NCBI GenBank assembly: GCA_028820635.1
Contig: JAPPIG010000109.1
Location: forward strand, 149,711-213,710
Direction of reading: 5' to 3'
Origin: Candidatus Poribacteria bacterium
Lineage (GTDB): Bacteria > Poribacteria > WGA-4E > WGA-3G
DNA: 64,000 nt
Made by a program: the position numbers and the translations under genes. Below are positions 33,856 through 34,875 of the stretch, in pieces. The notes under the pieces are model-generated. The model was not told the DNA's origin. It made no database searches and was given only the letters and a program-made list of their open reading frames with translations. Every line of letters begins with the position of its first letter. Position 1 is the stretch's first letter.

Positions 33856-34212
33856 CTACAGTATTTTTAAGAGAACTCCGATTCTTTCTAAAACGGCATC
33901 TACTGTCTCTGTCGGTAAAGAACAAATAAATTCTGCGTTTCTCGCCCGCCAATCCATAGTCCTAATCTGGTCTGCAAGAATAACCCCATCAACTTCTAAC
34001 CCTTCAGGAATGGCAATTGCAAACGGATTTCTCCGTTCTCTTACACTGCTCCGAGTAATCGGACAAAGAACCATTAAACTGGTTTTATCGTTAAAATCTT
34101 TAGTAGTTAGCACAATTGCAGGTCGACGACCAGCTTGTTCATGTCCAGTTTGAGGATTGAAGTCAATCCATACCACATCTCCGCGCAGTGGAACGTTTGT
34201 TAACCCTACCAT
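33856..34212 (-). CDS. mazF: MazF/PemK-family mRNA interferase toxin
   Basis: RGDVVWIDFNPQTGHEQAGRRPAIVLTTKDFN…CPITRS…VILADQIRTMDW. Confidence 0.92.
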   Translation of the reverse strand: MVGLTNVPLRGDVVWIDFNPQTGHEQAGRRPAIVLTTKDFNDKTSLMVLCPITRSSVRERRNPFAIAIPEGLEVDGVILADQIRTMDWRARNAEFICSLPTETVDAVLERIGVLLKIL

Positions 34213-34589
34213 ACTTCATTGCCCACCGGCGGCCCGGTGTCTATTTCATCATGTGAACTATCTTTTACCTGGTCCAATAGGTCTTTCAGTGTATAATCAG
34301 GGCGTTTTATAGAACCACTCCCTTTTTCTGTCCGCGGGGGACCGAATGAAGCATCTTTTGCCTTCTTGCGGTTTGCACCATCCTCTGGTATTTGTGCCAA
34401 CAAGTCTTCTAACGTATAGTTGGGGCGTTTTATAGAATCACTTCCTTTTTCGTTACGAGGTGGGCCAAACGCATCCGCTTCTTTTTTTGTTGGAAGTTGA
34501 TCAGTCTGTTCTCGGTTAATGGACTGTAGATAACAGAGATATGCTATAACGATCAAGCATTCAGTGAAAGTAAACGTTTTTTCTGACAT
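34206..34589 (-). CDS. Atypical MazE-like antitoxin with duplicated C-terminal-like segment
   Basis: C-terminus YTLKDLLDQVKDSSHDEIDTGPPVGNEVW resembles the MazE tail; two repeats FGPPR.EKGS.SIKRP.YTL.DLL.Q; 7-nt overlap with mazF; SD AAGGAGAAG. Confidence 0.75.
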   Translation of the reverse strand: MSEKTFTFTECLIVIAYLCYLQSINREQTDQLPTKKEADAFGPPRNEKGSDSIKRPNYTLEDLLAQIPEDGANRKKAKDASFGPPRTEKGSGSIKRPDYTLKDLLDQVKDSSHDEIDTGPPVGNEVW

Positions 34590-34633
34590 GATTCTTCTCC
34601 TTATACGTGTATGCTTGCAAATGACAGGAACTA

Positions 34634-34857
34634 TTAATAGGGAAAGTGTTGCACGACTATCCCACTCTGGATATTTTCTGGCAATGAACGTCCTAATTCT
34701 TGATAGAGTTCCATCACTGCTTTAAAAGCGTCTTTGACGTTTTCTAACGACTCGTCTAACGAATCACCCTCGGCAACCAACTCAGGCAACAGTGGAGAAG
34801 TTACTGTATAGCCTCCCTCAGGTTGTGTGTCAGAACAAGGGGGATTTTGTATTCCAT
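34634..34857 (-). pseudogene. HicB-like antitoxin remnant with a frameshift
   Basis: MEYKIPLVLTHN then -/+1 frame QPEGGYTVTSPLLPELVAEGDSLDESLENVKDAFKAVMELYQELGRSLPENIQSGIVVQHFPY*; 224 nt, not a multiple of 3. Confidence 0.7.
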
Positions 34858-34875
34858 CAGGACCTCATAAATTTG

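What the first reader, a model, noticed from the sequence alone, without database searches (positions are those of the whole stretch)
34206..34589. MazE-like antitoxin with duplicated toxin-binding-like segment and no recognisable AbrB domain
The C-terminus (YTLKDLLDQ…TGPPVGNEVW) resembles the MazE toxin-binding tail (E. coli MazE: FTLAELV…WGEPKDKEVW). The N-terminus is a short hydrophobic segment instead of the usual SpoVT/AbrB DNA-binding fold. The segment FGPPR-EKGS-SIKRP-YTL-DLL-Q is present twice. It overlaps mazF by 7 nt. One polypeptide may neutralise two toxin units, or act without autoregulation.
Basis: partly seen in the sequence, partly recalled or inferred. Interest (0 to 1): 0.68.

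Follow-up and report, generated by a model that had tools for sequence, protein, structure and literature searches.

The report
MazF antitoxin with doubled binding helix
Sponge-associated Poribacteria carry a large, apparently undescribed group of MazF antitoxins that have lost the usual DNA-binding, pairing domain and in most cases carry the toxin-gripping helix twice, so one chain could block both active sites of the paired toxin.

Summary
Window 34206-34589 (-) encodes a 127-aa protein overlapping mazF by 7 nt. It has no AbrB/SpoVT domain by Pfam or AlphaFold2. A 29-aa segment occurs twice, and the C-terminal tail is homologous to E. coli MazE. The gene belongs to a family confined to one Poribacteria family. 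The MazF toxins next to these antitoxins form a single clade (SH-aLRT 96). Of 46 such antitoxins, 33 have the doubled unit and 13 a single one; of 63 AbrB-containing MazE, none has it doubled. The duplicated unit is the part of MazE that binds 'sites III + II' on MazF; the 'site I' tail is present once. Published work shows that the site-II peptide alone inhibits MazF and that a MazF dimer takes two site-II ligands at once. Both copies are under purifying selection, lie about 41 residues apart, and resemble each other within a gene (80%) far more than between genes (42-45%). Best explanation: a MazE arm freed from AbrB that clamps both site IIs of its MazF dimer with one chain. Antitoxin role: near certain. 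Clamp geometry: inferred, untested. A second PemK-antitoxin family in these bacteria shows the same doubling at exactly 41 residues. Verdict: a new variant of a known kind.

The parts
34206..34589 (-). AbrB-less MazE-type antitoxin gene, 127 aa
   Evidence: ORF; no Pfam domain; family alignment A1; no AbrB fold in the AlphaFold2 model
34597..34600 (-). probable Shine-Dalgarno GGAG, 7 nt before the ATG
   Evidence: sequence
34503..34568 (-). N-terminal hydrophobic helix, residues 8-29, in place of the AbrB domain
   Evidence: AlphaFold2 helix 8-29, mean pLDDT 85 for residues 11-20; not conserved across the family; dN/dS 0.32 for residues 1-25
34383..34469 (-). repeat unit 1, residues 41-69 (FGPPRNEKGSDSIKRPNYTLEDLLAQIPE): equivalent of MazE sites III+II, lacks the site I tail
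   Evidence: dN/dS 0.15, its helix 0.089
34347..34382 (-). variable linker, residues 70-81; helix-to-helix spacing about 41 aa across the family
   Evidence: dN/dS 0.36; spacing 40-41 aa in 31 of 36 proteins
34260..34346 (-). repeat unit 2, residues 82-110 (FGPPRTEKGSGSIKRPDYTLKDLLDQVKD): equivalent of MazE sites III+II
   Evidence: the profile aligns this helix with E. coli MazE; dN/dS 0.094, its helix 0.033
34209..34259 (-). single C-terminal arm, residues 111-127 (SSHDEIDTGPPVGNEVW): equivalent of MazE site I
   Evidence: aligns with NLHENIDWGEPKDKEVW of E. coli MazE; dN/dS 0.086
33856..34212 (-). MazF endoribonuclease toxin, 118 aa; E25, R30, T53 align with E. coli MazF E24, R29, T52; F40, K43, P63, F64, V113 align with site II residues Y39, K42, P59, F60, V108
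   Evidence: PF02452 E=4.5e-29; alignment to E. coli MazF; site II residues as listed in PMC12557383

Best explanation
It is the antitoxin of a type II MazEF module that has lost the AbrB DNA-binding and dimerisation domain and kept only the MazF-gripping arm of MazE, with the helix-bearing half of that arm (sites III+II) duplicated in tandem. Each YTLxDLL helix fits the hydrophobic site II groove at an edge of the MazF dimer, which is also an RNA-cleavage site. One chain lays helix 2 plus the site I tail on one protomer and helix 1 on the other, so a single polypeptide blocks both active sites. Avidity between the two linked helices replaces the avidity that canonical MazE gets from dimerising through AbrB. 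Without a DNA-binding domain the operon is probably not autorepressed in the usual way. Shown by sequence: operon, missing AbrB, MazE-type tail, duplication, selection on both helices, fixed spacing. Inferred: simultaneous occupation of both site IIs, 1 chain per MazF dimer, loss of autoregulation.
For: mazF is adjacent in 48 of 70 related antitoxin ORFs. The tail matches E. coli MazE and the same profile finds ordinary AbrB-MazE upstream of MazF in many phyla. The duplicated unit aligns with MazE residues about 48-67. PMC12557383 reports that MazE 54-67 alone inhibits MazF while 48-53 and 68-82 do not, that site II overlaps the substrate site, and that two 12-mer site-II ligands bind one MazF dimer independently. 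Site II contact residues are largely kept in this MazF. dN/dS is 0.089 (helix 1), 0.033 (helix 2) and 0.086 (tail), against 0.51 (spacer), 0.36 (linker) and 0.13 (MazF). Within-gene repeat identity is 80% against 42-45% between genes (tree), so both copies track one partner. Helix spacing is 40-41 aa in 31 of 36 proteins, while N-terminal lengths range from 27 to 118. The duplication occurs in 33 of 46 AbrB-less antitoxins and 0 of 63 AbrB-MazE. In three related loci mazF is missing, and two of those antitoxins are broken.
Against: No structure of a complex was obtained. The AlphaFold2 job on a read-through antitoxin-MazF fusion (single-repeat, one MazF copy) gave no inspectable contacts. 13 of 46 AbrB-less antitoxins have one unit only, so doubling is not essential for AbrB-less antitoxins in general. 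In canonical MazEF a single arm already inactivates a MazF dimer, and whether helix 1 can bind while the tail crosses the dimer is untested. Conserved spacing could partly reflect shared descent of a 123-nt unit.
Confidence: 0.55

Rival explanations
1. The two units bridge two separate MazF dimers, each helix binding a different dimer, giving chains or closed assemblies. This would restore the two-dimer bridging that the AbrB dimer provides in E. coli MazF2-MazE2-MazF2.
For: Canonical MazE bridges two MazF dimers (PMC12557383). About 30 residues between the helices is long enough. Both copies resemble each other.
Against: Only the second copy carries the site I tail, so the two grips are unequal. 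A near-constant spacing would not be needed for loose bridging.
Confidence: 0.2
2. The first unit is not a grip on the cognate MazF. It binds something else, such as a paralogous MazF in the same cell, the mRNA or operator, or a protease adaptor.
For: Units are rich in Pro/Arg. These genomes hold several PemK-family toxins (7 hits in this genome).
Against: Unit 1 is homogenised with unit 2 inside each gene rather than with other genes' units, and its helix is under strong purifying selection; both point to the same partner.
Confidence: 0.12
3. The duplication is a by-product of a tendency of these genomes to make short tandem duplications, and one unit would do.
For: Other genes in the fetched DNA also carry tandem duplications (Uma2 108 nt, TPR 102/204 nt, WD40 126 nt). 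Single and double forms interconvert at least 5 times.
Against: Helix 1 dN/dS is 0.089 across orthologues. Most of the family stays double. The 123-nt period is found in antitoxins and not in the other repeats seen. AbrB-MazE never shows it (0/63).
Confidence: 0.1
4. The gene is a decaying remnant, or not an antitoxin.
For: Some relatives are solitary or broken (L002, L012, L013).
Against: Intact and conserved in 10 orthologous loci, 9 with mazF; ribosome-binding site and 7-nt overlap with an intact mazF.
Confidence: 0.03

Closest known systems
E. coli MazE-MazF (PDB 1ub4) and MazE in general (AbrB/MazE, PF04014 + C-terminal arm)
   Same: Operon order antitoxin-mazF with 7-nt overlap; C-terminal arm TLxxLLxxI...EIDxGxPxGxEVW; MazF with the catalytic and most site II residues kept.
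   Different: No AbrB domain, so no known dimerisation or DNA-binding part; site III+II segment present twice; highly variable N-terminus.
AbrB-containing MazEF of the same genome (L033) and of other Poribacteria families (L228-L232)
   Same: Arm of the same type (RRTDLQALLAKMPKDYEPEETDWGKPVGKEVW in L033; GLKLDDLLAQVTEHNLHDEVDTGPAVGGEV in L228) and a MazF.
   Different: Keep AbrB, have a single arm unit, and their MazFs fall outside the AbrB-less clade (the L033 branch was in the tree; L228-L232 were not placed in it).
SamF and MazE 54-67 peptides (PMC12557383)
   Same: A site II helix alone, without AbrB, inhibits MazF; two ligands per MazF dimer.
   Different: Artificial peptides, not tethered to each other; the poribacterial protein would be a natural tethered pair plus the site I tail.
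Second poribacterial antitoxin family (e.g. L159:1429-1881, ARGLEGAYDDDEPEYTLDML... x2) with PemK-like toxin
   Same: No AbrB found; unit containing PxYTLDxL duplicated at exactly 41 aa; upstream of a PF02452 toxin.
   Different: No site I tail; unit sequence otherwise different; toxin only distantly MazF-like (E=2.4e-5).

Membership tests
AbrB/MazE antitoxin (PF04014 architecture) | N-terminal SpoVT/AbrB swapped-hairpin DNA-binding and dimerisation domain | tested here: not met
   No Pfam hit; AlphaFold2 shows helices only; the upstream frame holds stops; absent in all 46 antitoxins of the clade
AbrB/MazE antitoxin (PF04014 architecture) | C-terminal MazF-binding arm (site II helix + site I tail) | tested here: met
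   Family profile hits 1ub4_C and 1mvf_D over MazE 49-82, E=0.0014; same profile finds AbrB-MazE in many phyla
AbrB/MazE antitoxin (PF04014 architecture) | Autorepression of its operon by DNA binding | not testable with these tools
   No recognised DNA-binding domain; not excluded for the basic linkers
MazEF type II toxin-antitoxin module | Antitoxin gene directly upstream of a MazF/PemK endoribonuclease gene | tested here: met
   7-nt overlap; PF02452 E=4.5e-29; recurrent in the family
MazEF type II toxin-antitoxin module | Toxin keeps catalytic residues | tested here: met
   E25, R30, T53 align with E. coli MazF E24, R29, T52 (catalytic role of R29/T52 from general knowledge, E24)
MazEF type II toxin-antitoxin module | Antitoxin neutralises toxin activity | not testable with these tools
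   Needs co-expression
Bivalent (two-grip) antitoxin | Two copies of the toxin-binding helix, both under selection | tested here: met
Bivalent (two-grip) antitoxin | Both copies bind the same MazF dimer | tested here: inconclusive
   The fusion model holds one MazF and one helix and gives no contacts; indirect support from homogenisation and spacing

The most novel reading that the evidence does not exclude
Poribacteria evolved a new way of silencing MazF/PemK-fold toxins: a single-chain, unfolded, two-grip antitoxin in which a fixed 41-residue spacing matches the two active-site grooves of the toxin dimer. It arose in two antitoxin families, is kept in register by concerted evolution of the repeats, and in one locus faces a MazF that is itself fused into a single-chain pseudo-dimer.
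Probability: 0.35. Interest if true: 0.75.

Novelty: new variant of a known kind. Interest (0 to 1): 0.62.

Why it matters
Type II antitoxins are usually described as a DNA-binding dimeriser plus a toxin-binding tail, and MazEF control is explained by that dimer. Here a whole clade has dropped the dimeriser and doubled the tail's inhibitory helix, which separates neutralisation from autoregulation and gives a natural test of whether linking two site-II helices replaces dimerisation. It also provides natural templates for tight MazF inhibitors. The within-gene homogenisation of the two copies gives a clear case of partner-driven concerted evolution.

Tried and rejected
Hidden AbrB domain upstream of the ATG: rejected (stops in frame). 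Chance repeat: rejected. Pfam GIDA_C hit (E=0.003, below cut-off): ignored as a disordered-region artefact. A genome-wide 123-nt duplication habit as the cause: not supported, other tandem repeats in the fetched DNA have other periods. Literature searches found no description of AbrB-less, repeat-bearing MazE or of poribacterial MazEF; only open-licence papers were searched.

Full report
WHAT IS THERE. On the minus strand, 34206-34589 encodes 127 aa and its last 7 nt overlap the ATG of mazF (33856-34212). A GGAG precedes the ATG by 7 nt. The repeat stands out in DNA (two 97-nt copies, 70% identical, 123 nt apart) and in protein (residues 41-69 and 82-110, 72% identical, score 114 against at most 31 in 5000 shuffles). 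No Pfam family fits; NCBIfam MazE touches only residues 95-127 at E=0.089. AlphaFold2 with 36 relatives predicts three helices (8-29, 60-65, 101-109), no strands, pTM 0.19: a largely unfolded chain with no AbrB fold. The frame above the ATG is closed by stops.

FAMILY. Searching the 59 held genomes of the same bacterial family gave about 100 related places in 51 genomes. The named collection shows that these are Candidatus Poribacteria. 48 of 70 antitoxin ORFs sit directly upstream of a MazF. In a sample of 20 near-complete genomes, the E. coli-type MazF loci with a recognisable upstream antitoxin were 20 two-unit AbrB-less, 6 one-unit AbrB-less and 6 AbrB-MazE (my count from the table). Outside this family, the five intact arms in other families of the same order sit behind AbrB domains (two further short hits there look broken).

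LINK TO MazE. The family profile matches E. coli MazE 49-82 at E=0.0014. The same profile also finds ordinary AbrB-MazE proteins with tails such as YTLEELVAQITPENRHEEWDTGPPVGKEIW upstream of MazF in Chloroflexi, Planctomycetota, cyanobacteria and others. So the tail DTGPPVGNEVW is a standard MazE tail; what is unusual is the lost AbrB and the duplicated unit.

WHICH PART IS DOUBLED. In E. coli the arm has three segments: residues 48-53 (site III), helix 54-67 (site II), extended 68-82 (site I). The peptide 54-67 alone inhibits MazF; 48-53 and 68-82 do not. Site II overlaps the RNA site. Two site-II ligands bind one MazF dimer independently, whereas full MazE puts one arm on each dimer (PMC12557383). 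The poribacterial unit covers III+II and is doubled; site I is single. Site II contact residues Y39, K42, P59, F60, V108 of E. coli MazF correspond here to F40, K43, P63, F64, V113 (M38 is D39).

SELECTION AND EVOLUTION. Among 9 orthologues, dN/dS is 0.089 for helix 1, 0.033 for helix 2, 0.086 for the tail, 0.13 for MazF, but 0.36 for the linker and 0.51 for the spacer: the first copy is kept for a reason. A MazF tree, which does not use the antitoxin, puts all 46 AbrB-less-linked MazFs in one clade (SH-aLRT 96; the alignment is short, and many inner forks are unresolved), with at least 5 switches between one and two units. AbrB loss thus looks like one event followed by a radiation. Within a gene the two units are on average 80% identical, between genes 42-45%; their DNA identity ranges from 67 to 100%. 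In the repeat tree the units group by gene or by close orthologue group, not as all-first against all-second. Repeated re-duplication or gene conversion keeps them alike, as expected if both must fit one rapidly changing partner. No AbrB-MazE (0 of 63) has a second unit, so doubling goes with AbrB loss.

SPACING. The two helices lie 40-41 residues apart in 31 of 36 proteins, although N-terminal lengths run from 27 to 118 and linkers diverge. A second antitoxin family in the same bacteria, with a different unit (ARGLEGAYDDDEPEYTLDML...) and a PemK-family toxin, is doubled with exactly 41 residues in 16 of 16 cases. Other tandem repeats seen in the fetched DNA have other periods (Uma2 108 nt, TPR 102/204, WD40 126). 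A geometric constraint set by the toxin dimer is an attractive reading; shared descent of a 123-nt unit is not excluded.

MECHANISM. I infer a single-chain clamp: helix 2 plus tail on one edge of the MazF dimer, helix 1 on the other, avidity replacing AbrB dimerisation, and no AbrB-based autorepression. The steps from operon to selection are shown; simultaneous binding, stoichiometry and regulation are inferred. The 13 one-unit relatives show that a single unit can suffice in some lineages. The single AlphaFold2 fusion test was inconclusive.

CONTEXT. The locus is vertically inherited: GBBH-like and rhodanese genes follow it in 12 loci. In three of those loci (L007, L012, L013) mazF is gone, and in two of these the antitoxin is broken, as expected for an antitoxin freed from its toxin.

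VERDICT. By works-like: a MazE. By membership: it fails the AbrB criterion and meets the arm and operon criteria. New variant of a known kind; interest 0.62.

Noticed in passing
L236:1049-1753 (+), with antitoxin L236:384-1055; broken copy L234: Two MazF domains fused in one 234-aa chain; by eye the second half has lost the stretch with the catalytic Glu and Arg. The upstream antitoxin has two units 41 aa apart but a degenerate site I tail. A natural single-chain toxin / single-chain antitoxin pair.
   Followed up: partly
L159:1429-1881, L154:1498-2271, L156, L160-L169; own genome L174:1299-1631 (one unit): Second AbrB-less antitoxin family in Poribacteria with duplicated ARGLEGAYDDDEPEYTLDML unit, always 41 aa apart, upstream of PemK-family toxins; in L104 the toxin has TPR-like repeats in front.
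   Followed up: partly
window 34634-34866 (-): Relic of a HicB-like antitoxin upstream of the antitoxin gene, apparently frameshifted; no HicA seen next to it.
   Followed up: no
L007, L012, L013: Same locus with mazF deleted: antitoxin intact in L007, disrupted in L012 and L013.
   Followed up: partly
L092:881-1552, L087:776-1447: Uma2-like proteins with a tandemly duplicated N-terminal segment (TLEEFLENDVPGYEY), 36 aa apart.
   Followed up: no
L197:1004-1474: Hybrid antitoxin: a different PemK-type antitoxin N-terminus fused to a MazE-arm unit, beside a broken MazF.
   Followed up: no
L031, L052, L063, L055 and L104, L154-L156, L174: A helical N-terminal module (GEDENHxLxPLxxFIGNLIEKYE) is shared between both antitoxin families, suggesting exchange of N-termini.
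   Followed up: no
L100, L103, L133, L134, L141: Chloroflexi loci with two or three AbrB-mazE genes in a row before one mazF; L103 has a mazF fragment between them.
   Followed up: no
L002:1310-1563: Solitary broken one-unit relic of the same antitoxin family elsewhere in the window's own genome, without mazF.
   Followed up: no
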